The notes beneath the pieces were generated by a model. It saw only the letters and a list, made by a program, of their open reading frames with translations. It made no database searches and was not told where the DNA came from. Of a stretch of DNA of 64,000 bases, positions 54,363 through 64,000 are shown one piece after another. Made by a program: the position numbers and the translations under genes. The stretch lies in the NCBI RefSeq assembly GCF_035918235.1, contig NZ_CP109485.1, positions 9,393,001 through 9,457,000 on the forward strand. Reading direction: 5' to 3'. This stretch comes from Streptomyces sp. NBC_01445 (GTDB taxonomy: Bacteria; Actinomycetota; Actinomycetes; Streptomycetales; Streptomycetaceae). The number at the start of each line of letters is the position of its first letter. Position 1 is the first letter of the stretch.

Positions 54363-55364
54363 TCACTGGCCCAGTGTGATCCGGGCGGCCACGGGCAGAT
54401 GGTCGCTGCCGGTTTCGGGCAGCGTACGGATCTGGGTGACCGTCGCCGAGCGGGCCATCACCTGGTCGATCCGTGCCACCGGGAAGGCGGCAGGGAAGCT
54501 GAACGCGAATCCGCGCTCCGCCGTGTTCATGCTTGAGGTCAGCGGGGCCAACCCGCGGTCGTCGACCGTGCTGTTGAGGTCGCCCAGCAGGATCACCGGC
54601 TTCACCTTCTCGGCAGCGACGGCCTGTCCCAGCACGCAGGCGCTCTCGTCGCGCCACGTGGAGCCGAGGCCGCTCGCCCCGACGCGGACCGAGGGCAGAT
54701 GCGCAACGTACACGGCGATCTCGCCGCGCGGCGCGTGGACCACGGCGCGCAGCCCACGCTCCCAACTCTCCCTAATCCCACGGGGTTTGATGTCCACCAG
54801 CCGGGCGTCGGTCAGTGGATGCTTCGACCAGAGTCCGACCGTACCCCGGACCGCGTGGTACGGATACCGCGGGGCCAGCGTCCTGTCGTAGACGGGCCGC
54901 GCCGCCGGGAGCAGCTCCTCCAACGCGATGAGGTCGGGCCCGGCGTCGGCCAGGGCGCGGGCTGTGCCCGCCGGGTCGGTGTTCACGTCACTGACGTTGT
55001 GCTGCACCACGACCAGGTCGTGTGCGCCAGGTGTCTTCCCCGGCAACAGCAGCCCGCCGCAGAGGTACGTCCATGCCGCCACGGGCAGGAGCAGGGCCAC
55101 CAGCGCTGCGGCCGAACGGCGCACCAGCGCCAGGAGGAACAGCACCACGACCACCAGGCCGAGCCAGGGCAGGAACTGCTCCAGCAGACTGCCCAGGTGC
55201 CCCACGGAGTTGGGCACGGCCCGGTGGAACGCCAACAGTCCGGCCGTCACCACGGCGAGCGCAGCGAGCACACGCCCGCGTGCCCAGGCCGAACGATCCC
55301 ACTTCACCCTGGGCGTCCCATCTGCTTCCCCGCACCGCTCACCCTGTTCCCCCGCACCACTCAC
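54363..55364 (-). CDS. Membrane-anchored endonuclease/exonuclease/phosphatase family protein
   Basis: 333 residues. Two to three N-terminal membrane helices (VLAALAVVTAGLLAFHRAV, LVVVVLFLLALV, AALVALLLPVAAWTYL) precede an EEP domain with the metal and catalytic residues: LVVVQHNVS (Asn), ALEELLP (Glu), VILLGDLNST (Asp-x-Asn) and TGSDHLPVAA (Asp-His). The catalytic domain faces outside. The GTG at 55364 overlaps the stop of the gene before it (GTGA), so both are made together. Substrate could be a nucleic acid, phospholipid or phosphoinositide. Confidence 0.88.
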   Translation of the reverse strand: MSGAGEQGERCGEADGTPRVKWDRSAWARGRVLAALAVVTAGLLAFHRAVPNSVGHLGSLLEQFLPWLGLVVVVLFLLALVRRSAAALVALLLPVAAWTYLCGGLLLPGKTPGAHDLVVVQHNVSDVNTDPAGTARALADAGPDLIALEELLPAARPVYDRTLAPRYPYHAVRGTVGLWSKHPLTDARLVDIKPRGIRESWERGLRAVVHAPRGEIAVYVAHLPSVRVGASGLGSTWRDESACVLGQAVAAEKVKPVILLGDLNSTVDDRGLAPLTSSMNTAERGFAFSFPAAFPVARIDQVMARSATVTQIRTLPETGSDHLPVAARITLGQ

Positions 55365-56455
55365 GACCGTGTCGCGGTCCCGCACTCCGCATCGTCGGCG
55401 CCCTGCATGCGCGCCTCCATCGACGTGCTCCGGTCGTACGGGTCGACCTCGGGGCCGGATCCCGGGCCGGACGCCGCGCGCGCGGAGGGGAACTCCGGGA
55501 CGTAGAAACCGGTGTCGTTGTCGCAGCCGCCGTTGGCGGTGTCCGACTTGTAGGAGACGAGGGAGAACGTCCCCGGCTCGGTGATCACCTTCGCCGGGTC
55601 GTCCCAGCTCATCACCACCTCGCGGCGCACGATCGTGCGCGCGACCTCGTCCCTTCCCTCCGCGGCGTGCGCGACCGGATAGACGTACGTGACGTCGGTG
55701 GTCACCTCGACAGCACCGCGCTTGCCCTCCCGGTACGTGATCCGCCCGCGCGTCTTGACCACGTCCCCGACGAGACGCACCTTCTCCGTCGCGAAACGGC
55801 TGAACAGCAGCAGAGGATCGTCGTCCTGGCTCGGCGCGCGGAACGCGGTCGCCAGGTAGTCCTGGACGTCCTTCTGATCCGGATTGATCAACGCGATCGC
55901 CTTCGCGGGCGGCCGTCCGAGAAGCACACCGGAATCCAGATTGGACGCGGCAAGAAAGTCCCGGGACTTGTCGAGCGCCTGCGAGACTTGCGCCTTGCTC
56001 ATCCAGCCGGTCGCCCGGGCCTCGGGGACGGTGATCCCCGCCGTTCCGTCACCCCACTGCGCCGCGGGCGATCCCCTGAACGGCTCTTGGAGTGTGGGCT
56101 GTTGGGCCGCCGACTCGGTCGCGGGCGGCTGGTCGGGGCGTTCCGACTCCGCGGCGAGCGGGGTGTCGCCGCCTCCACGGCCGAACCAATCGGTCACGCG
56201 CCCGGGATCCAGCGCCACGAACAGCATGCCCGCGGCGACGAGCAGTCCGACCACGTACCAGCCCTTGCCCCGCCGCTGCCGGGCCGGTTCGTGCGTCCGC
56301 CACCCCTCGGGCCGGTCGGTCTCCTCCCGCAGTCGTCGCGTCACCATCCGGGCCCGGGCCGACGGTTCCTCGGGCGCGCCCTGGGTCCCGGCCTCGGCCT
56401 CCCTCTGGAAACGCTCCCACTCCTCGTCCGATATGGACGCCCCACCCTTGCTCAC
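55361..56455 (-). CDS. Membrane protein of unknown function
   Basis: 364 residues. A charged cytoplasmic leader (ISDEEWERFQREAEAGTQGA and a following Arg-rich stretch) is followed by one membrane helix (GWYVVGLLVAAGMLFVALDP) and a large outer domain (about 130-340) with TREGK/EVTTDVTYVYPVA-like beta strands. The family is that of uncharacterised Streptomyces proteins with an SCO2583-like layout; I cannot name the domain. The GTG at 56455 has GGGGAG 6 nt upstream. It is coupled to the membrane EEP gene by a 4-bp overlap. Confidence 0.72.
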   Translation of the reverse strand: MSKGGASISDEEWERFQREAEAGTQGAPEEPSARARMVTRRLREETDRPEGWRTHEPARQRRGKGWYVVGLLVAAGMLFVALDPGRVTDWFGRGGGDTPLAAESERPDQPPATESAAQQPTLQEPFRGSPAAQWGDGTAGITVPEARATGWMSKAQVSQALDKSRDFLAASNLDSGVLLGRPPAKAIALINPDQKDVQDYLATAFRAPSQDDDPLLLFSRFATEKVRLVGDVVKTRGRITYREGKRGAVEVTTDVTYVYPVAHAAEGRDEVARTIVRREVVMSWDDPAKVITEPGTFSLVSYKSDTANGGCDNDTGFYVPEFPSARAASGPGSGPEVDPYDRSTSMEARMQGADDAECGTATRS

Positions 56456-56592
56456 GATGTGCTCCCCGCCCCTTCCGCGGTACCTGACGCGGTGCTCCAC
56501 CTTCACCGCGTCGAGTCGGCCGATGGCATGGTTGCCGCCTCGGCGTCGCTGATCTTAATCCGTGAGCAGGCGGGGTCGGGTGCCTCAAGGGC

Positions 56593-56619
56593 CCGGTGCC
56601 GGGGGTAGCCCGGCACCGG
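56593..56619 (-). terminator. Terminator of the deiminase-transport operon
   Basis: A perfect 11-bp stem (CCGGTGCCGGG at 56593-56603 and complement at 56609-56619) with a 5-nt loop follows the stop of the secreted deiminase gene on the minus strand. Confidence 0.75.
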
Positions 56620-56629
56620 AACCAGGTCG

Positions 56630-57787
56630 CTACGGGCGTGGCTGCTGCTGCGTGACGCAGTGGATGCCGCCGCCGCCCGCGCCGAGGCTGTCGATGTTGA
56701 GCTGTTCGACGGTACGGCCCGGGAACAGCCGCTGGAGGAGCGCCTTGGCCCCTGCGTCCGCACGGGTGTCACCGAACTGGGCCGAGATCACCGCACCGTT
56801 GCACACGTAGTAATTGGCGTACGCCGCAACGAAGTTGGCATCACCCGACCGGATGCGGGAGTAGTCCGGGCCCTGCAGCTTGGTGACCGCGATCGGCGTG
56901 CCGTCGGCGTCGGTGGACGTGGAGAGGAGCTGGTACTGCTGACGGGCGTCCTTCGACCACGGGTCGGTGTCGGTGGCCAGGGGCATCTGGACGAGGCCGT
57001 CACCCGCGGCGAGGAAGCGGGAGGTGGCGTCCACGTGGTCGTCGGTGATGTCCCGCCCGGTCACTCCGTTGAACCAGATCACCTTCGACGCCCCGAAGGC
57101 GTCGCACATCGCGGCCTCGATCTGCGCGGTTGTCATGCCCGGGTTGCGGTTCTTGTTGACGAGGCTGCTCTTGGTGGCCATGAGCGTGCCGTTGCCGTCC
57201 GTCTCCACCGCGCCGCCCTCGCCGACGAAGTCGGCGCTGGTGAGCTGCACCCCGACCTCGGCCGCGATGCGCCCGGCGACCAGCGAGTCCTTCGCGTGGG
57301 TCTGCTTGTTGCCCCAGCCGTTGAAGTTCAGGTCCACGGCGTCGAGGCCACCGGCCCCGTCGGTGCGGAAGACCGGCCCGCTGTCACGTATCCAGCAGTC
57401 GTCGACCGGGATGGAACCGATCACGGTGACGGCCGATCCGCAGGCGCTCCGGGCCTGCGAGACGCCGGCGGAGTTGGCGCACATGGTGACCGGTTCGTAC
57501 TTGGCGATCGTCTTCGCGATGAGGGCGATGTTCGCCTGGACGCCGGCCAGCTTGCGGCCCCAGATGGCGGTGCTGTCGGGCCACGCCATCCACGTCCGGG
57601 TGTGCGGGACGGTGTCGAGCGGCACGGCGAAGCCCGTGCCGGAGGCCGGAACCGGGGTGGCGAGTGCCTTGCCGCCGCCGGTCGCGGCCCAGGCGGCGCC
57701 GGCCGCCGCCAGCCCTGTCGCGGCGAGGAAGTTCCTCCTGCCGAGCAGGCGGTGGGACGGGCTCTGAGGTGCGCGGTGGTCGTTCAC
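56630..57787 (-). CDS. Tat-exported agmatine deiminase/peptidyl-arginine deiminase family protein
   Basis: 385 residues. The Tat signal GRRNFLAATGLAAAGAAWAA is unusual for this family. The PAD_porph domain has the D-x-W-x-R-D motif VDDCWIRDSGPVF, FNGWGNKQ, EGGAVETDGNGTLM, TDDHVDATSRF and the catalytic cysteine in GGGGIHCVTQQQPRP. It would convert agmatine or exposed arginine groups to carbamoylputrescine or citrulline outside the membrane. The GTG at 57787 has GGAG 7 nt upstream. It is the last gene after the peptide ABC importer; it shares about half of its motifs with the cytoplasmic copy at the window end. Confidence 0.9.
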   Translation of the reverse strand: MNDHRAPQSPSHRLLGRRNFLAATGLAAAGAAWAATGGGKALATPVPASGTGFAVPLDTVPHTRTWMAWPDSTAIWGRKLAGVQANIALIAKTIAKYEPVTMCANSAGVSQARSACGSAVTVIGSIPVDDCWIRDSGPVFRTDGAGGLDAVDLNFNGWGNKQTHAKDSLVAGRIAAEVGVQLTSADFVGEGGAVETDGNGTLMATKSSLVNKNRNPGMTTAQIEAAMCDAFGASKVIWFNGVTGRDITDDHVDATSRFLAAGDGLVQMPLATDTDPWSKDARQQYQLLSTSTDADGTPIAVTKLQGPDYSRIRSGDANFVAAYANYYVCNGAVISAQFGDTRADAGAKALLQRLFPGRTVEQLNIDSLGAGGGGIHCVTQQQPRP

Positions 57788-57843
57788 CTGTGGTCTCCGA
57801 TCTGGTGTGTACGGATCTCTGGACGGTGGTCTCGGGGCCCGGG

Positions 57844-58641
57844 CTACAGAGCGCGGCGGGCCAGGGCGATGGCCTGCGGGTTCCATCCGGGGCGGGGAAT
57901 CGACTCCAACAGCAGCCGCGTGTATGCGTGTTGGGGAGCGTCGAGGACTTGGGGGGTGGGTCCCGACTCGACGATCCGGCCCTGGCGCATGACGATCACG
58001 TCGTCGGTCACGCAGCGCACCACGCCGAGGTCGTGCGTGATGAAGAGGTAGGCGATGCCGGTCTGTTCGCGGATGTCGGCGAGCAGGTTGAGGATCTGCG
58101 CCTGAACCGACACGTCCAGGGCTGCTACGGCCTCGTCGAGTACGAGTACGGCCGGTTCGACCGCGAGGGCCCGCGCGATGGCCACCCTCTGGCGCTGTCC
58201 ACCGGAGAGCTGCCGGGGCAGGGCGCCGGCCGCCCGGCTGCCGAGCCCTACCTGGTCGAGGAGTTCGCCGAGACGGTGCGAGTGGTCCCCGTCGGGAAAG
58301 TGGAGCCGCAGCGTTTCGCGCAGCGCCGCGTCGACGGTGATTCTCGGATCGAGGGAGAGGAACGGGTCCTGGAACACCATCTGGACCTCGCGGGCCCGGG
58401 CAAGCCGGGCCGCCCGGCCCCGCGCCCGAACCGTTCGAGAAACGCCGCGCACCAGGACCTCGCCCGCGTCGGCGCGCTCCAGGCCCACGACGATGCGGGC
58501 GGTCGTCGTCTTGCCCGAGCCGGACTCGCCGACGATGCCGAGCGATCCGCCCACGCCGAGCGTGAACGAGACGTCGTCCGCCGCCCGGACGCTGCGGTAT
58601 GAGCGGGTCACTCCGGTGACCTGGAGGACGGTTTCACTCAT
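57844..58641 (-). CDS. Oligopeptide ABC transporter ATP-binding protein (OppF-like)
   Basis: 265 residues. Walker A is GESGSGKTT, the signature LSGGQRQRVAIARAL and Walker B VLVLDEAVAALD, where the usual LDEPVSALD proline is an alanine. The usual C-terminal oligo_HPY domain is missing, which is common for the F-type partner. Its ATG overlaps the preceding ATPase gene by 8 bp. It powers the two permeases with the D-type partner. Confidence 0.92.
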   Translation of the reverse strand: MSETVLQVTGVTRSYRSVRAADDVSFTLGVGGSLGIVGESGSGKTTTARIVVGLERADAGEVLVRGVSRTVRARGRAARLARAREVQMVFQDPFLSLDPRITVDAALRETLRLHFPDGDHSHRLGELLDQVGLGSRAAGALPRQLSGGQRQRVAIARALAVEPAVLVLDEAVAALDVSVQAQILNLLADIREQTGIAYLFITHDLGVVRCVTDDVIVMRQGRIVESGPTPQVLDAPQHAYTRLLLESIPRPGWNPQAIALARRAL

Positions 58642-59632
58642 GGCCGGACTTCCCTTCGAGCCGTTCACTGTGGTGGCACGCGACGCGATGCGGCAGCAGC
58701 CCGTCCTCGTCGCCGGCCGGCCGGTCGACGGGAGCCTCGTCCCGGCAGATGCCGGTGGCGTACGCGCACCGGGGCGCGAACGGGCAGCCGGTCAACTCCT
58801 GTCGCAGATCGGGTGGTTGACCGTCGATCGCGGCCAGTCGTCCCTGCGGTGCGTCGAGGCGCGGTGTGGCCTCCAGGAGGGCGGCCGTGTACGGGTGCCT
58901 CGGCCGGTCGAAGAGGGCTTCGGCGGGGCCGGTCTCGGCGATGCGTCCCGCGTACATCACGTAGACCCGGTCGCTGATGGTCGCGGCGAGACCGAGGTCG
59001 TGGGTGACGAAGAGCAGGCCGGTGCCGAATCGTTCGCGCAGTTCGCCGAGGAGGCCGACGACCTCGGCCTGAGTGGTGACATCGAGTGCCGTGGTGGCCT
59101 CGTCGGCGAGGAGGAGCGCCGGGTCGCCCATCAACGCGGCCGCGATCATGACGCGTTGGAGCATGCCGCCGGAGAGCTGGCCCGGATAGCGCCGCAGGGC
59201 GTCGGAGGAGAGGCCGACCGCGGCGAGCATCTCCGCGGCGCGCCGGGCTGCGTCCTCGGCGCGGCTTCCGGCGTTGAGGCGCAGGCTCTCGGTGAGGAAG
59301 TCCCCGATCCGGCGCAGCGGGTTGATGGCGGCGCGGGGGTCCTGGAAGATCATGGCGGCCGTGCCGGTGCGCAGCTCGCGCAGCCGCGCGGGCGTCATCG
59401 TGAGGACGTCGTCGCCCGAGACCCGTACGGTCCCCTCGGTCGTGGCCCCTGGCGGCAGCAGGCCCAGGACGCTGCGGGAGGTGAGGGACTTCCCGGAGCC
59501 GGACTCGCCGACGAGGGCGCCCGTCTCCCCGGCGGCGACGGTGAGGTCGACGCCGTCGAGTACCGGCCGTGCGGTGTCCGGGAGCTGGAGCCGCAGGCCT
59601 TGGATGTCGAGCACGGGTGGGGTGTCGTTCAT
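58634..59632 (-). CDS. Oligopeptide ABC transporter ATP-binding protein (OppD-like)
   Basis: 332 residues with Walker A GESGSGKSLTSR, signature LSGGMLQRVMIAAAL, Walker B LLLADEATTALD and the oligo_HPY end GCPFAPRCAYATGIC, whose cysteines commonly bind an Fe-S cluster in the family. The ATG at 59632 has GGAGG 6 nt upstream and overlaps the stop of the permease gene. Confidence 0.93.
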   Translation of the reverse strand: MNDTPPVLDIQGLRLQLPDTARPVLDGVDLTVAAGETGALVGESGSGKSLTSRSVLGLLPPGATTEGTVRVSGDDVLTMTPARLRELRTGTAAMIFQDPRAAINPLRRIGDFLTESLRLNAGSRAEDAARRAAEMLAAVGLSSDALRRYPGQLSGGMLQRVMIAAALMGDPALLLADEATTALDVTTQAEVVGLLGELRERFGTGLLFVTHDLGLAATISDRVYVMYAGRIAETGPAEALFDRPRHPYTAALLEATPRLDAPQGRLAAIDGQPPDLRQELTGCPFAPRCAYATGICRDEAPVDRPAGDEDGLLPHRVACHHSERLEGKSGHE

Positions 59633-60483
59633 CGGTCCCTCCTGGCGACCTGGTCGGCCCAGCGCTCGCCGACCACGTTGAACGCGACGACGGTCAGCAC
59701 GATCGCGGCACACGGCAGGAACGCCGACAGGGGATAGCCCCGCTGGATGGCGGTCTGGCCGTCGAAGACCATCCGGCCCCAGTCGGGCGTCAGCGCGGGC
59801 ACCCCGAGTCCGAGGAAGGACAGACCCGCCAGATCGATCAGCGCGTAGCCGAAGTTGATGGCGGACTGGGCGAGGACGACGGGCGCGATGTTGGGCAGGA
59901 CGTGCCGCAGACAGACCTGGAGACCGGAGTGCCCCTGCACCGAACAGGCGCTGACGTACGGGCGTTCACGCTCGGCCAGCGCCAGGGAACGGGTGAGCCG
60001 GCTGACATACGGGAGGTAGGCGACGGCGAGCGCGACGACCGGGGCGAAGAGGCCCTCGCCGTACACGGAGACGATCAGGATCGCCAGGAGCATTCCGGGG
60101 AAGGCGAAGACCAGCTCGGTGCCGCGCGACAGCACGGAGTCGAGCCAGCCGCCCCGCCAGGCGGCGGCGATCCCGATGGCGACACCGGCGACGGTCGAGA
60201 AGGCGACCACGCCGAGCGGGCCGAGCAGTGAGGTCCGCGCGCCGACGACCAGGCGGGACAGCGTGTCGCGGCCGGAGGCGTCGACGCCGAAGGGGTGGGC
60301 GGTGGACGTGCCCGCCAGCGCGTTGCCGAGGTCGGCCGCGTTGGGGTCGGACGGGGCCAGCCAAGGGGCGAGCAGGGCCGTCAGGACAACCACGCAGACG
60401 AAACCGAGGCAGAGCACGTGGAGGAGCGGACGGTCGGTGCGGAGCCGGGCGAGGCCGGGGCGGCGCAGAACGGCGACTCTCAT
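59629..60483 (-). CDS. Peptide ABC transporter permease (DppC-like)
   Basis: 284 residues with about six membrane helices. The DppC-type N-terminal segment APWLAPSDPNAADLGN and the later HPFGVDASGRDTLSRLVVGA are diagnostic. An EAA-like loop YVSACSVQGHSGLQVCLRHV contacts the ATPases. It starts at an ATG overlapping the preceding permease stop (ATGA). Confidence 0.93.
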   Translation of the reverse strand: MRVAVLRRPGLARLRTDRPLLHVLCLGFVCVVVLTALLAPWLAPSDPNAADLGNALAGTSTAHPFGVDASGRDTLSRLVVGARTSLLGPLGVVAFSTVAGVAIGIAAAWRGGWLDSVLSRGTELVFAFPGMLLAILIVSVYGEGLFAPVVALAVAYLPYVSRLTRSLALAERERPYVSACSVQGHSGLQVCLRHVLPNIAPVVLAQSAINFGYALIDLAGLSFLGLGVPALTPDWGRMVFDGQTAIQRGYPLSAFLPCAAIVLTVVAFNVVGERWADQVARRDR

Positions 60484-61439
60484 GCGGCGGACCTCCCCGG
60501 GCCGAGGGAAATGCGCGGGTCGACCAGGGGGTGGACGAGGTCGACGACGAGGTTGACCGCCATGAACAGCACGACCATGGTCAGCGAGATGGCCTGCACG
60601 GTGGGGAAGTCCTTGGTGGTGATGGACAGTTCGAGGAGCTGGCCGATGCCTCCGACACCGAACGCGGACTCCACGAGGACGGTGCACACCAGCAGGGTGG
60701 AGACGATCAGACCGCCGGTGGTGAGCACGGTGCCGAGCGCGTTACGGAACACATGCCTGCTGATGACGTGACGCTTCGGGACACCACGGCTGAGGGCCAC
60801 AGTGACGTGCTCCTGGCCGAGGACATCGAGCATGGCGCTGCGCGTGACGCGGGCCAGCATGCCGATCAGATACAGCGAGAGGGCCACGGCCGGGAGGGTC
60901 AGATGCCAGAGCAACTGGCCGAACCCTTCGCCGGTGCCGCCGGCGGGAAACCAGTGCAGCCGCACCGCGAACACACCCTGGAGCACGACCGCGGCGACGA
61001 ACGACGGAGTGCCGACGGCGAGGGTGGTGGTGACCAGGATCGTGGCGTCGGTGGCGCCGCCGCGGACCGCGCCGATCCGGCCGAGAGCGAGGCCGACGAC
61101 CACGACGAGGACCAGAGCCATCGTGACCAGGAGCAGGGTGCTCGGCAGCCGGTCGGCCAGGAGCCGGGACACGTCGGTGCGGTAGGTGATCGAGCGGCCG
61201 AAGTCGCCGTGCAGCAGCTGGCCGAGCCAGCGGAAGTACCGTACGGCGAACGGGTCGTCGAGGTGGTACTGCTCATTGACCGCGCGCAGCGCGTCCGGCG
61301 AGGCGGACCGCCCGGACAGGAGGAAGCTCGCCGGGCTGCCGGGCGCCAGATACATCGCGCCGAAGATCACGAACGAGGCGCCGAGCAGGGTGGCGGCCAT
61401 CTCGGCCAGCCTCCGCACCGTGAATTTGAGGAAGTTCAT
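60480..61439 (-). CDS. Peptide ABC transporter permease (DppB-like)
   Basis: 319 residues with about six helices. The start MNFLKFTVRRLAEMAATLLG and the loop HLDDPFAVRYFRWLGQLLHG, with DFGRSITY after it, are typical of DppB/NikB permeases. The C-terminus ends VHPLVDPRISLG. The start overlaps the stop of the binding-protein gene. Confidence 0.93.
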   Translation of the reverse strand: MNFLKFTVRRLAEMAATLLGASFVIFGAMYLAPGSPASFLLSGRSASPDALRAVNEQYHLDDPFAVRYFRWLGQLLHGDFGRSITYRTDVSRLLADRLPSTLLLVTMALVLVVVVGLALGRIGAVRGGATDATILVTTTLAVGTPSFVAAVVLQGVFAVRLHWFPAGGTGEGFGQLLWHLTLPAVALSLYLIGMLARVTRSAMLDVLGQEHVTVALSRGVPKRHVISRHVFRNALGTVLTTGGLIVSTLLVCTVLVESAFGVGGIGQLLELSITTKDFPTVQAISLTMVVLFMAVNLVVDLVHPLVDPRISLGPGRSAA

Positions 61440-63091
61440 TGCGCGGCCCCGATGCCGGCGGCCCACGGGGAGTACAAGTAGGAGATGGTGGTGGGGGCGC
61501 CGGTGATCCGCTTGTTGAGGAACAGGGCGGTGGGCCACTCGGCGACCGGGATCCACAGCACCTGACCGGCCGCCTTCCGCTGGAGTTCGGCCTCTGTCGT
61601 CAGGCGCTCGACCGGGTCGTACGTGGCGCGGGCCCGGTCGACCAGGCGGTCGTACGAGCGGTCGCTGTAGCCGGCGAAGTTCTGGTACGCGCCCGTCCGG
61701 AAGTTGCTGAGCAGGTCCAGCGGATCGGTGATCGAGTCGTAGTACGTCTCGGGGAACATGTCGATGCCCTTGCGCGCCTGCGGGTCCGTGAACAGCGCGG
61801 TGAAGGCGTTGGGAGCGATGGTCTTGAGCTTGATGTCGAGCCCGATCTCGCTGCCCGCGGCCTGGACGGCGGTGGCGAGCAGCGACACGTCCTGACCGAT
61901 CGAACTGGTGGCGACGGTGAGCGTCTTGCCGGTGGCGCCGGCTGCCTTGATCAGTTTCTTCGCCTTGCTCAGGTTCGGCTCGGCGGACGGGAGTCCGTCG
62001 AAGGCGGCCTTGCGTACCGATTCCGGGGCGGCGGCCCAAGCAGCCTTCGTCGTGAGGGAGTTGGTGACGGTTCCCGCGCCGCTCAGGCCGGTCTTGAGGA
62101 AGCCCCGGCGGTCCAGAGCCAGCGACAGCGCGCGCCGGACCCGGACATCACCGAGCGGTCCGCGCATGTTGGTGACATTGACGTTGACCGTGCTGAGCCC
62201 CTCACCGAAGGAGAGGGTCCCGACACCTGAGGAGCGCAGTGCGCCGTAGCTCTCGGTGGGGATGAGGTATCCGCCGTCCACCTCGCCGCTGAGCATGGCC
62301 TTGGTGCGCGCGGAGGAGTCACTGAGGAAGCGGAACACCGCTTTGGCGGACTTGGCCTTCGTTCCCCGGTAGCGGTCGAAGCGCCGCAGCTCGATCGACT
62401 GGCCCTTGTCCCACTTGCCCAGCTCGTACGGTCCCGAGCAGGCGAGTCCACCGGAGGTGCCGTAGTCCCGGCCCGCGGCCCTGACCCCGGACCGGCTTGC
62501 CACCACTCCGGCGGCGGTCGCCATGTACTGGGGGAACTGCGAATCGGGCCGCTTCAGTTTGACGGTGACCTGGAGCGGGCCGGTCTTGTCGAGCGAGGCG
62601 ACGTTCTCGAAGACCTGCGCCCACGCCGCCCCGTTGTGCGGGTTCATCTGCCGCCCGAGGCTGAAGAGGACGTCGTCGGCGGTCAGGACGCGCCCGTCGT
62701 GGAAGCGCACGCCGTCGCGCAGGTCGTACACCCAGGTCAGCGGGTCGGGATTGGACGCCTTCCTGGCCAGACCCGGCGCCAGTCTCAGGTCGGGCGTCCA
62801 CCGCATCAGGCTCTCGCACACATTGGAGAGGATCATGTTCTGCGGGTAGTCGAACGCCGAGATGTAGTCGAGCGTCGGGGGCTCCGCGTACAGCGCCCAC
62901 GTGAACGAGTCGATCCGGCCCTTCGCCCGTGGCGTGTTCGCGGACAGCCGGAAGTCGGTACCCGCGCCCGAGGCGCCGGTGCCCGGCGGTCCCGCACACG
63001 CGGGGACCAGGAGAATGGCGGACAGGGCAGCGGCCAGCAGGGCGGGACGGCCGGCCCCGCGTCTTCCCGGCCGGGGTGGTGTGGTGTGCAT
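61436..63091 (-). CDS. Peptide ABC transporter substrate-binding lipoprotein
   Basis: 551 residues of the SBP_bac_5 type. The lipobox is ILLVPAC, followed by a Gly/Ala-rich spacer. TWALYAEPPTLDYISAFDYP, then VYDLRDGVRFHDGRVLTADD and SGPYELGKWDKGQSIELRRF match oligopeptide/nickel/opine binding proteins. It sits 47 bp downstream of the first agmatine deiminase gene and starts the five-gene importer. Arginine-containing peptides or guanidino compounds are likely ligands because deiminase genes flank it, but this is inference. Confidence 0.92.
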   Translation of the reverse strand: MHTTPPRPGRRGAGRPALLAAALSAILLVPACAGPPGTGASGAGTDFRLSANTPRAKGRIDSFTWALYAEPPTLDYISAFDYPQNMILSNVCESLMRWTPDLRLAPGLARKASNPDPLTWVYDLRDGVRFHDGRVLTADDVLFSLGRQMNPHNGAAWAQVFENVASLDKTGPLQVTVKLKRPDSQFPQYMATAAGVVASRSGVRAAGRDYGTSGGLACSGPYELGKWDKGQSIELRRFDRYRGTKAKSAKAVFRFLSDSSARTKAMLSGEVDGGYLIPTESYGALRSSGVGTLSFGEGLSTVNVNVTNMRGPLGDVRVRRALSLALDRRGFLKTGLSGAGTVTNSLTTKAAWAAAPESVRKAAFDGLPSAEPNLSKAKKLIKAAGATGKTLTVATSSIGQDVSLLATAVQAAGSEIGLDIKLKTIAPNAFTALFTDPQARKGIDMFPETYYDSITDPLDLLSNFRTGAYQNFAGYSDRSYDRLVDRARATYDPVERLTTEAELQRKAAGQVLWIPVAEWPTALFLNKRITGAPTTISYLYSPWAAGIGAAQ

Positions 63092-63138
63092 CGGCGCGGT
63101 TCCTCTCCGTACGTACGTCGCCGAGGGTGAGGAACTGC

Positions 63139-64000
63139 TCAGGCGCGCGAACGCGCGGCGGGGACCTGCTGGGTGATGCAGTGGACACCGCCACCGCCGT
63201 GGGCGATCACGCGGGCGGTCACGCCGACGACTTTGCGCCCGGGACAGGCCTGCGCGATGACCTCCAGGGCCTGCGCGTCCTGAGGCAGCCCGGCGACGGG
63301 TACGACCACGCCGCCGTTGGCCACATAGAAGTTGAGGTATCCGACCTCGACGGGCTCTCCCTCGACCTCGACGAACGCGCTCTGCGGCAGATCGACGATC
63401 TCCAGCGTCCGCCCCGTCGCGTCGGGCGTGGCCTCAAGGACCGCCCGGTTGGCGCGCATCCGCGCGTAGTCGGGGTGCTCGGGATCATCCGGCAGCTGTA
63501 CGACGACCTTGCCGGGGGCGACGAACGCGCAGACGCCGTCCACGTGACCGTCCGTCTCCGTGTCCAGAAGCCCGCCGTACGGCAGCCAGATCACCTTGGT
63601 GACACCGAGCCGGGCCTTCAGTTCCGCCTCGATCTCCGCCCTGGTCAGGCCCGGATTGCGGTTGGGGTGGAGCAGGCACTGCTCAGTGGTGATCAGCGTG
63701 CCCTCACCGTCCACGGTGATCGCCCCGCCCTCCAGGATCATCTCGGAGCGGTCGGCCGGGACACCGAGCCGTTCGAGCAGCAGAGCACTGATGCGGTCGT
63801 CGGCGTCGTACGGGTGGTGCTTGCCGCCCCAGGCGTTGAAACGGAAGTCCACGCCGGCCCGGCGGCCGTCGGGGCCGAGCACGAACAGCGGCGCGGAGTC
63901 GCGGAACCACGAGTCGTCCGTGGGCAGTTCGATCACCTCGACGTCTTCGCCGCACAGGTCACGGGCCTCGGCTGCGTGGCCGGGCGGCGCGACCATGGTC
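63139..64000 (-). CDS. Agmatine deiminase, C-terminal part (gene cut by window end)
   Basis: The frame is open through base 64000, so about 285 C-terminal residues are present and the N-terminus (about 50-60 residues) is missing. The PAD_porph motifs are complete: DDSWFRDSAPLFV, FNAWGGKHHPYD, EGGAITVDGEGTL, TDGHVDGVCAFV and the catalytic cysteine in GGGGVHCITQQVPA. Because the start is not visible, the presence of a signal peptide cannot be judged, but this type is normally cytoplasmic. It hydrolyses agmatine to N-carbamoylputrescine. It is first of the deiminase-transport group. Confidence 0.92.
   Translation of the reverse strand, partial: TMVAPPGHAAEARDLCGEDVEVIELPTDDSWFRDSAPLFVLGPDGRRAGVDFRFNAWGGKHHPYDADDRISALLLERLGVPADRSEMILEGGAITVDGEGTLITTEQCLLHPNRNPGLTRAEIEAELKARLGVTKVIWLPYGGLLDTETDGHVDGVCAFVAPGKVVVQLPDDPEHPDYARMRANRAVLEATPDATGRTLEIVDLPQSAFVEVEGEPVEVGYLNFYVANGGVVVPVAGLPQDAQALEVIAQACPGRKVVGVTARVIAHGGGGVHCITQQVPAARSRA

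What the first reader, a model, noticed from the sequence alone, without database searches (positions are those of the whole stretch)
56630..64000. Peptide ABC importer flanked by two agmatine-deiminase paralogues, one Tat-exported
Seven same-strand genes with mostly overlapping ends: deiminase, binding protein, two permeases, two ATPases, exported deiminase. An extracellular member of this family beside a full importer suggests outside deimination of arginine groups or agmatine followed by uptake, with an inside enzyme finishing the job. I know of no described system with this layout.
Basis: partly seen in the sequence, partly recalled or inferred. Interest (0 to 1): 0.7.

Follow-up and report, generated by a model that had tools for sequence, protein, structure and literature searches.

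The report
Guanidine-scavenging locus with exported deiminases
A conserved, jointly regulated gene cluster in Streptomyces and relatives pairs deiminases sent outside the cell with an importer, an inside deiminase and an unusual urease-like enzyme, probably to use agmatine or a similar guanidine compound as food, much like a known Pseudomonas operon but built from different parts.

Summary
In detail: a cytoplasmic agmatine-deiminase-family enzyme, a binding lipoprotein, two permeases, two ATPases and a Tat-exported deiminase lie on one strand. They belong to a larger locus running past the window: urease-like UreAB/UreC upstream, then TetR genes and two more deiminases. The palindrome TGACTGAA-nn-TTCAGTCA occurs four times with at most one mismatch in the genome, always in this locus. 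Of 79 loci fetched with the binding protein, 74 have the inside deiminase upstream, 77 the whole importer, 74 an exported-type deiminase. 'No described system' is wrong: Pseudomonas agu2ABCA' has the same logic, and its Tat-exported Agu2A' falls in the same clade. New are the importer family and the urease variant: metal-ligand motifs kept, urea pocket rebuilt in all 29 copies aligned. At six loci without the variant an AguB-like amidase lies in the operon; none of the 79 has both. I infer that the variant cleaves the deiminases' ureido product, perhaps N-carbamoylputrescine. Substrates are unproven.

The parts
63139..64000 (-). cytoplasmic agmatine-deiminase-family gene (cytPAD), first gene of the operon; 336 aa, its start lies 149 nt beyond the window edge
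   Evidence: Glu at the position of MtAIH Asp220, catalytic residues kept
61436..63091 (-). family-5 substrate-binding lipoprotein (551 aa, lipobox LVPAC)
   Evidence: conserved in 79 loci
60480..61457 (-). importer permease, OppB/NikB-like
59629..60480 (-). importer permease, OppC/NikC-like (start inferred; longest ORF to 60687)
58634..59632 (-). importer ATPase, OppD-like (start inferred; longest ORF to 59713)
57844..58641 (-). importer ATPase, OppF-like (start inferred; longest ORF to 58668)
56630..57787 (-). Tat-exported deiminase (TatPAD), 385 aa with GTG start at 57787 (longest ORF to 57886); Ile at the position of MtAIH Asp220; same clade as Pseudomonas Agu2A'

Best explanation
The seven genes are the core of a guanidine-scavenging locus under one operator, an actinobacterial counterpart of Pseudomonas agu2ABCA'. 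Step 1 (inferred): Tat-exported deiminases turn a guanidino compound outside the cell, most likely agmatine, into its ureido product (N-carbamoylputrescine) and ammonia. Step 2 (inferred): the Opp/Nik-type ABC importer brings in the ureido product and/or the intact guanidine. Step 3 (inferred; catalytic residues shown): the cytoplasmic deiminase converts guanidine that arrives intact. Step 4 (inferred from slot replacement and a rebuilt active site): the urease-like UreAB/UreC variant hydrolyses the ureido product to amine, CO2 and ammonia, the job of the amidase AguB in the Pseudomonas operon and in some actinobacterial versions. Step 5 (operator shown, binding inferred): a TetR repressor, probably one encoded in the locus, switches the units through TGACTGAA-nn-TTCAGTCA.
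For: Conserved unit: cytPAD upstream in 74, all four other importer genes in 77, an exported-type deiminase within 2.5 kb downstream of the importer in 67 and anywhere in the locus in 74 of 79 loci. Shared operator: three exact sites and one with one mismatch in the 11.47-Mb genome, all in this locus; 145 sites at up to one mismatch in the 79 loci against 1 for the reversed pattern and 0 for each of five shuffled palindromes. Parallel: a P. aeruginosa plasmid locus reads deiminase, AguB, binding protein, deiminase; the last protein begins with the Agu2A' signal printed in PMC6085387 and falls in the exported clade (201 of 202 members with Ile/Val220, support 0.948). UreC variant: metal-ligand motifs kept, pocket loop and flap changed in 29 of 29 aligned copies (one row fragmentary). 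Slot: AguB-like gene between cytPAD and binding protein in five of the 79 loci and in L044; ureC only 44, AguB only 5, neither 30, both 0. Genomes of L154 and L160, with ureAB-ureC right after the importer, show no AguB-like gene at E <= 1e-30; those of L152, L153, L158, L162 have AguB in the operon and no UreC variant.
Against: No activity is shown for any part. Exported deiminases lack the acidic residue that holds agmatine's amine in plant AguA, although Agu2A' lacks it too. Streptomyces and Kitasatospora genomes also hold AguB-like genes elsewhere, two in this genome, which score slightly higher on the AguB model (255-256 bits) than the in-operon ones (222-241); all are under the cut-off of 410. 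L161 and G054 have both AguB in the operon and the variant elsewhere. 30 of 79 loci have neither gene in view. Only 57 of 74 cytPAD genes have an operator within 400 bp upstream. Exported-type deiminases occur without the importer (L065-L072), and in 10 of 79 loci one follows an NCS1 permease instead.
Confidence: 0.5

Rival explanations
1. Same architecture, different substrate: the exported enzymes citrullinate arginine of peptides, or free arginine, outside, and the importer takes up citrulline or citrulline-containing peptides, as the first reader also proposed.
For: Importer family contains oligopeptide importers. Exported deiminases lack the acidic residue 220 of AguA and have a clade-specific Arg257 (197 of 197) and Glu195 (197 of 197) absent from the other groups. 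PPAD, a secreted relative, acts on C-terminal arginine (PMC4893104, passages seen).
Confidence: 0.2
2. The UreAB/UreC pair is an ordinary urease, so the deiminases make urea, for instance from free guanidine, or the urease is merely a neighbour.
For: Metal-ligand motifs are kept; the broad urease subfamily model PRK13207 is passed, 743 against 354. Loss of the flap Cys need not abolish urease activity (recalled).
Against: Equivalog TIGR01792 missed (638 against 680) while the genome's canonical copy passes even in a truncated translation (740). Pocket loop, flap and two further motifs differ in all 29 aligned copies. Deiminases of this family make ureido compounds, not urea, unless free guanidine is the substrate. 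Two UreC with canonical pocket exist elsewhere in the genome and the two ureG genes over the cut-off lie near those, not here.
Confidence: 0.17
3. The importer brings in nickel or a nickel chelate for the urease-like enzyme and has nothing to do with the deiminases.
For: Best-scoring models for the permeases and the binding protein include Nik models; urease-like genes are adjacent.
Against: All these scores are far below the curated cut-offs, for example Opp5A_nikA 109 against 600. The importer follows cytPAD in 74 of 79 loci but has ureC in view in only 44, and it stays in four genomes without the UreC variant. An exported deiminase closes the operon.
Confidence: 0.04
4. The exported deiminases protect the cell or attack neighbours by deiminating guanidino antibiotics or signals; the importer is for salvage only.
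For: Several exported deiminase paralogues per locus (cytPAD and exported together: mean 3.5, up to 7); soil antibiotic producers.
Against: No resistance or biosynthetic genes recur: only one unlabelled family, a TetR, was found in 35 loci, and the next in 13. A cytoplasmic deiminase, importer and ureido-cleaving candidate point to catabolism.
Confidence: 0.06

Closest known systems
Pseudomonas aeruginosa agu2ABCA' operon (Williams et al. 2010; paper not held, details recalled; Agu2A' entry and citation seen in PMC6085387)
   Same: Cytoplasmic deiminase, binding protein and Tat-exported deiminase in one operon; exported enzymes in one clade with Ile at position 220.
   Different: Binding protein is PotF/PotD-like by best model (below cut-off), no permease or ATPase in the operon shown, AguB in the operon, LysR gene beside it. 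Here: complete Opp/Nik-type importer, UreAB/UreC variant instead of AguB, TetR genes and palindrome, several exported paralogues.
Phyllobacterium sp. T1293 plasmid locus (L177)
   Same: Tat-type deiminase next to a complete ABC importer, AguB and a second deiminase.
   Different: PotD-like binding protein (below cut-off), aminotransferase, AguB and LysR; no urease-like gene annotated there.
Second UreAB/UreC-deiminase locus of this genome (L008; recalled as the S. coelicolor SCO5522-5529 region)
   Same: Same UreC variant beside a deiminase and a TetR gene. PMC3293853 lists SCO5525-5526 as ureABC and SCO5527 as a homologue of a step of the arginine decarboxylase pathway (passages seen).
   Different: Deiminase of another group (Gly/Pro at 220); no importer of this type, no exported deiminase and no operator site there.
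Agmatine deiminase AguA (plant AIH, Enterococcus, Chlorobium structures)
   Same: Fold and catalytic residues.
   Different: All PF04371 proteins scored here, including Agu2A and Agu2A', miss the TIGR03380 cut-off.

Membership tests
agu2ABCA'-type operon | two deiminases, one Tat-exported, with a binding protein between them | tested here: met
agu2ABCA'-type operon | exported deiminase of the Agu2A' clade | tested here: met
   201 of 202 clade members with Ile/Val220, support 0.948
agu2ABCA'-type operon | AguB amidase in the operon | tested here: not met
   absent in the window operon; present in L152, L153, L158, L161, L162, L044
agu2ABCA'-type operon | polyamine (Pot) type binding protein | tested here: not met
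   window protein is PF00496 family 5; Pseudomonas protein scores on PotF/PotD models
Agmatine deiminase AguA (TIGR03380) | catalytic Cys, His and Asp residues | tested here: met
Agmatine deiminase AguA (TIGR03380) | curated cut-off 381.8 bits | tested here: not met
   TatPAD 245.5, full cytPAD 347; Agu2A 302.8 and Agu2A' 245.6 miss it too, so the cut-off does not decide function
Agmatine deiminase AguA (TIGR03380) | acidic residue at MtAIH 220 that holds the amine | tested here: inconclusive
   cytPAD acidic in 77 of 78, exported type Ile/Val in 197 of 198; Agu2A' also Ile
Secreted peptidylarginine deiminase of the PPAD type | two Arg residues binding the terminal carboxylate | not tested
   no residue-level superposition made; PPAD rows rank below agmatine deiminases
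Oligopeptide/dipeptide ABC importer | family-5 binding protein, two permeases, two ATPases | tested here: met
Oligopeptide/dipeptide ABC importer | Asp that binds the peptide amino group (recalled) | tested here: inconclusive
   Ser aligned with it against 3zs6; alignment only, binding-protein model too poor
Nickel importer (Nik) | curated Nik model cut-offs | tested here: not met
Canonical urease | metal-ligand motifs of UreC | tested here: met
   (one of 29 rows fragmentary)
Canonical urease | flap Cys and urea-pocket loop | tested here: not met
   changed in 29 of 29 aligned copies
Canonical urease | TIGR01792 cut-off 680 | tested here: not met
   638.1; canonical copy of the same genome 739.8

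The most novel reading that the evidence does not exclude
The UreAB/UreC variant, present in many Streptomyces and labelled a second urease, is a urease-fold hydrolase of substituted ureas: it cleaves N-carbamoylputrescine (or the ureido product of another guanidine) and has replaced the nitrilase AguB. With the exported deiminases and the importer it completes a route that begins outside the cell.
Probability: 0.4. Interest if true: 0.8.

Novelty: new variant of a known kind. Interest (0 to 1): 0.6.

Why it matters
It turns vaguely annotated genes (agmatine deiminase family, peptide ABC transporter, urease) into one testable pathway with a defined operator, found in Streptomyces, Kitasatospora, Streptacidiphilus, Catenulispora, Nonomuraea and Microtetraspora. 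If the urease variant cuts ureido amines, that would be a new activity for the urease fold and would explain the second urease of Streptomyces. It would also show that outside-inside deimination exists in several builds, with the importer and the last enzyme exchanged.

Tried and rejected
Substrate from residue 220 alone: I first read Ile/Val220 of the exported deiminases as evidence against agmatine; dropped when Agu2A' proved to have the same residue and to lie in the same clade.

Nickel importer for the urease: rejected as the main reading (Nik models far below cut-off; importer goes with cytPAD more than with ureC).

Structure of the binding protein: AlphaFold2 gave pLDDT 64, so no fold search was made with it. 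The TatPAD model is good (pLDDT 94; searched); I had no coordinates for a residue-level comparison. Glu195 and Arg257 of the exported deiminases (197 of 197 each) may pair; not followed.

Sigma-70 promoter and terminator scan of 56200-64000 found none.

Papers: searches (open-licence PMC only, 12 of 122 listed) showed no title on this locus; I read passages of six papers only. Williams et al. 2010 is not held, so its results are recalled except for the Agu2A' entry and citation in PMC6085387.

NCS1 permease: in 10 of 79 loci an NCS1-family permease directly precedes an exported-type deiminase, all 10 with an operator upstream; no substrate could be derived. A hydantoin- or nucleobase-like substrate stays speculation.

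Rows dropped: one search left out 25 deiminase ORFs by its length or motif filter; one search used the 29 UreC copies with a match over 400 aa out of 44 loci with ureC; the six AguB-like and two ureC tests used eight to twenty genomes, not all. A 70%-identical 86-residue TatPAD match in G056 was not looked at.
Full report
WHAT IS THERE. The window is bases 9393001-9457000 of contig 1 of an 11.47-Mb genome. A locus with 99% identity over the binding protein is in Streptomyces sp. CB01635, so I treat the host as Streptomyces. On the minus strand lie, in order of transcription, a deiminase without signal (63139 to beyond the window edge, 336 aa), a family-5 binding lipoprotein (61436-63091), two permeases (60480-61457, 59629-60480), two ATPases (58634-59632, 57844-58641) and a deiminase with a twin-arginine signal (56630-57787). 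Both deiminases are Pfam PF04371.

THE LOCUS IS LARGER. Five genes of this deiminase family were found in the genome at E <= 1e-5; four lie within about 16 kb here and the fifth is at 3.81 Mb. Beyond the window edge, upstream on the same strand, come a urease alpha-like gene (9457276-9458985) and a fused gamma/beta gene (L006 12983-13696). A Ser/Thr kinase gene follows; on the other strand lie two TetR genes, a deiminase in which I see no clear signal, a deiminase with a Tat-like lipoprotein signal, then an NCS1 permease, a C45-type acyltransferase/hydrolase and an isochorismatase-family hydrolase. The fifth deiminase sits beside another UreC/UreAB pair, a TetR gene and an NCS1 permease; I recall this as the S. 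coelicolor SCO5522-5529 region.

ONE OPERATOR. TGACTGAA-nn-TTCAGTCA occurs three times exactly and once with one mismatch in the whole genome, at 9457202, 9459812, 9461593 and 9462972: in front of the cytPAD operon, of ureAB, of TetR, and of the divergent deiminase. The next best site has two mismatches (2627463); up to three mismatches 14 sites are found against 7 for the control pattern. In 79 loci of relatives 145 sites at up to one mismatch were found against 1 for the reversed pattern and none for each of five shuffled palindromes; at up to two mismatches 220 against 32 and none. Of the 220, the nearest labelled gene start is cytPAD for 55, a TetR of the locus for 54, PADlipo 39, PADb 19, ureAB 17, NCS1b 14, the kinase 2, none 20. 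That a TetR of the locus binds it is inferred.

CONSERVATION. A scan of genome contigs with the binding protein gave 90 stretches, 87 encoding a relative, the best 80 kept, 79 distinct loci, all analysed. They come from Streptomyces, Kitasatospora, Streptacidiphilus, Streptantibioticus, Catenulispora, Nonomuraea and Microtetraspora. cytPAD lies upstream of the binding protein in 74 of 79, all four other importer genes follow in 77, an exported-type deiminase lies within 2.5 kb downstream of the last ATPase in 67 and anywhere in the locus in 74, ureC in 44, TetR in 66; an operator at up to one mismatch is present in 72. Some loci end at contig edges. Labels are best BLAST hits. In reverse: of 61 genomes of the genus, the window's included, 43 have a match to the exported deiminase at E <= 1e-20; the seven with a full-length match at 67% identity or more, the window's included, all have it beside this importer. 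Other exported-type deiminases occur without the importer in view (L065-L072).

A KNOWN PARALLEL. A protein search of plasmids matched 68 records; 10 were listed and six opened, two of them without annotation. A P. aeruginosa locus reads deiminase, AguB, binding protein, deiminase, with a LysR gene beside it. Its last protein starts with the Agu2A' signal printed in PMC6085387, where Agu2A' is listed among the experimentally identified Tat substrates (passages), so I take it as agu2ABCA'. The original paper is not held; I recall that agmatine induces the operon and that the secreted enzyme affects biofilm when agmatine is added. A Phyllobacterium locus has a deiminase with Tat-type signal, a complete importer with PotD-like binding protein, AguB and a second deiminase. 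Agu2A' and three further plasmid-borne deiminases join the exported clade (201 of 202, support 0.948) and have Ile at 220.

THE UREASE VARIANT. In 29 UreC copies from the loci, and in both copies of this genome that stand beside deiminases, the HxH, Lys, His, His and Asp motifs remain (one row, L107, is fragmentary), but against the two canonical-pocket copies of this genome the loop GGGTGPAEGS.ATT.TPG has become GQE(I/F)GPxW(G/A)VGVNS with four residues lost, HTDT/HADS has become H(T/S)DG, the flap VCHHLN has become S(V/A)H(D/A/G)L(K/Q), and QAMGR has become QGMGR. A third, differently divergent UreC is also present. The variant misses TIGR01792 (638 against 680); a truncated translation of a canonical copy passes (740). 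Two ureG genes over the cut-off lie near the canonical copies, none here.

SLOT REPLACEMENT. An AguB-like nitrilase lies between cytPAD and the binding protein in three Catenulispora loci (L152, L153, L158), two Nonomuraea loci (L161, L162) and one genome of the window's genus (L044). Of the 79 loci 44 show ureC only, 5 AguB only, 30 neither, none both (by my arithmetic, no overlap has a chance of about 0.014, ignoring relatedness). Of eight genomes searched whole, those of L152, L153, L158 and L162 have only UreC at 45-48% identity, while those of L154 and L160 have the variant (82-84%) directly after the importer; those of L161 and L044 have AguB in the operon and the variant elsewhere. Of 20 genomes searched with AguB, those of L154 and L160 have no match at E <= 1e-30, and the five of L152, L153, L158, L161 and L162 have one each, at the operon. 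Against: the Streptomyces and Kitasatospora genomes of that set hold AguB-like genes elsewhere, this genome two; these score 255-256 on the AguB model against 222-241 for the in-operon ones (cut at their match start), all under the cut-off of 410, which the two proteobacterial AguB pass (446.7, 447.9).

MECHANISM AND VERDICT. Shown: gene content, order, conservation, operator, exported clade, pocket changes, slot pattern. Inferred: substrate (agmatine most likely), direction of flow, the variant's activity, TetR binding. I call it a new variant of a known kind (agu2-type outside-inside deimination) with one bold testable element, a urease homologue that cleaves substituted ureas.

Noticed in passing
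L006 13900-15504 (minus), beyond the window edge: Ser/Thr protein kinase gene (AfsK-like score 294 against a cut-off of 1300) divergent from TetR with the operator between them; kinase-like genes recur in many of the 79 loci.
   Followed up: partly
L054 3306-3959 and 4082; 35 of 79 loci: A further TetR-family gene recurs in 35 of 79 loci, in many of them between the last ATPase and TatPAD on the other strand; in L054 a different palindrome, TGACCGAGCGCTCGGTCA, precedes TatPAD.
   Followed up: no
L054 11147-13853 and 10 of the 79 loci: An NCS1-family permease gene directly precedes an exported-type deiminase, with the operator upstream in all 10 loci.
   Followed up: partly
L077 (own genome, 2627463): The next-best operator site (two mismatches) lies between an amino-acid-permease-like ORF and a TetR-like ORF read divergently (labels by eye).
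   Followed up: no
L087, L088, L089, L090, L091 (own genome): Five full UreC-type genes in one genome: two with canonical pocket, two of the variant, one differently divergent.
   Followed up: partly
window 54363-55385 (minus): Endonuclease/exonuclease/phosphatase-family protein resembling VanJ but far below that model's cut-off (275 against 700).
   Followed up: no
L007 3014-6390: NCS1 permease, C45-type acyltransferase/hydrolase and isochorismatase-family hydrolase in overlapping order after the lipoprotein deiminase.
   Followed up: no
L006 17072-18361: The third deiminase of this genome shows no clear signal, while its relative in L062 (12125-13291) has a twin-arginine signal.
   Followed up: no
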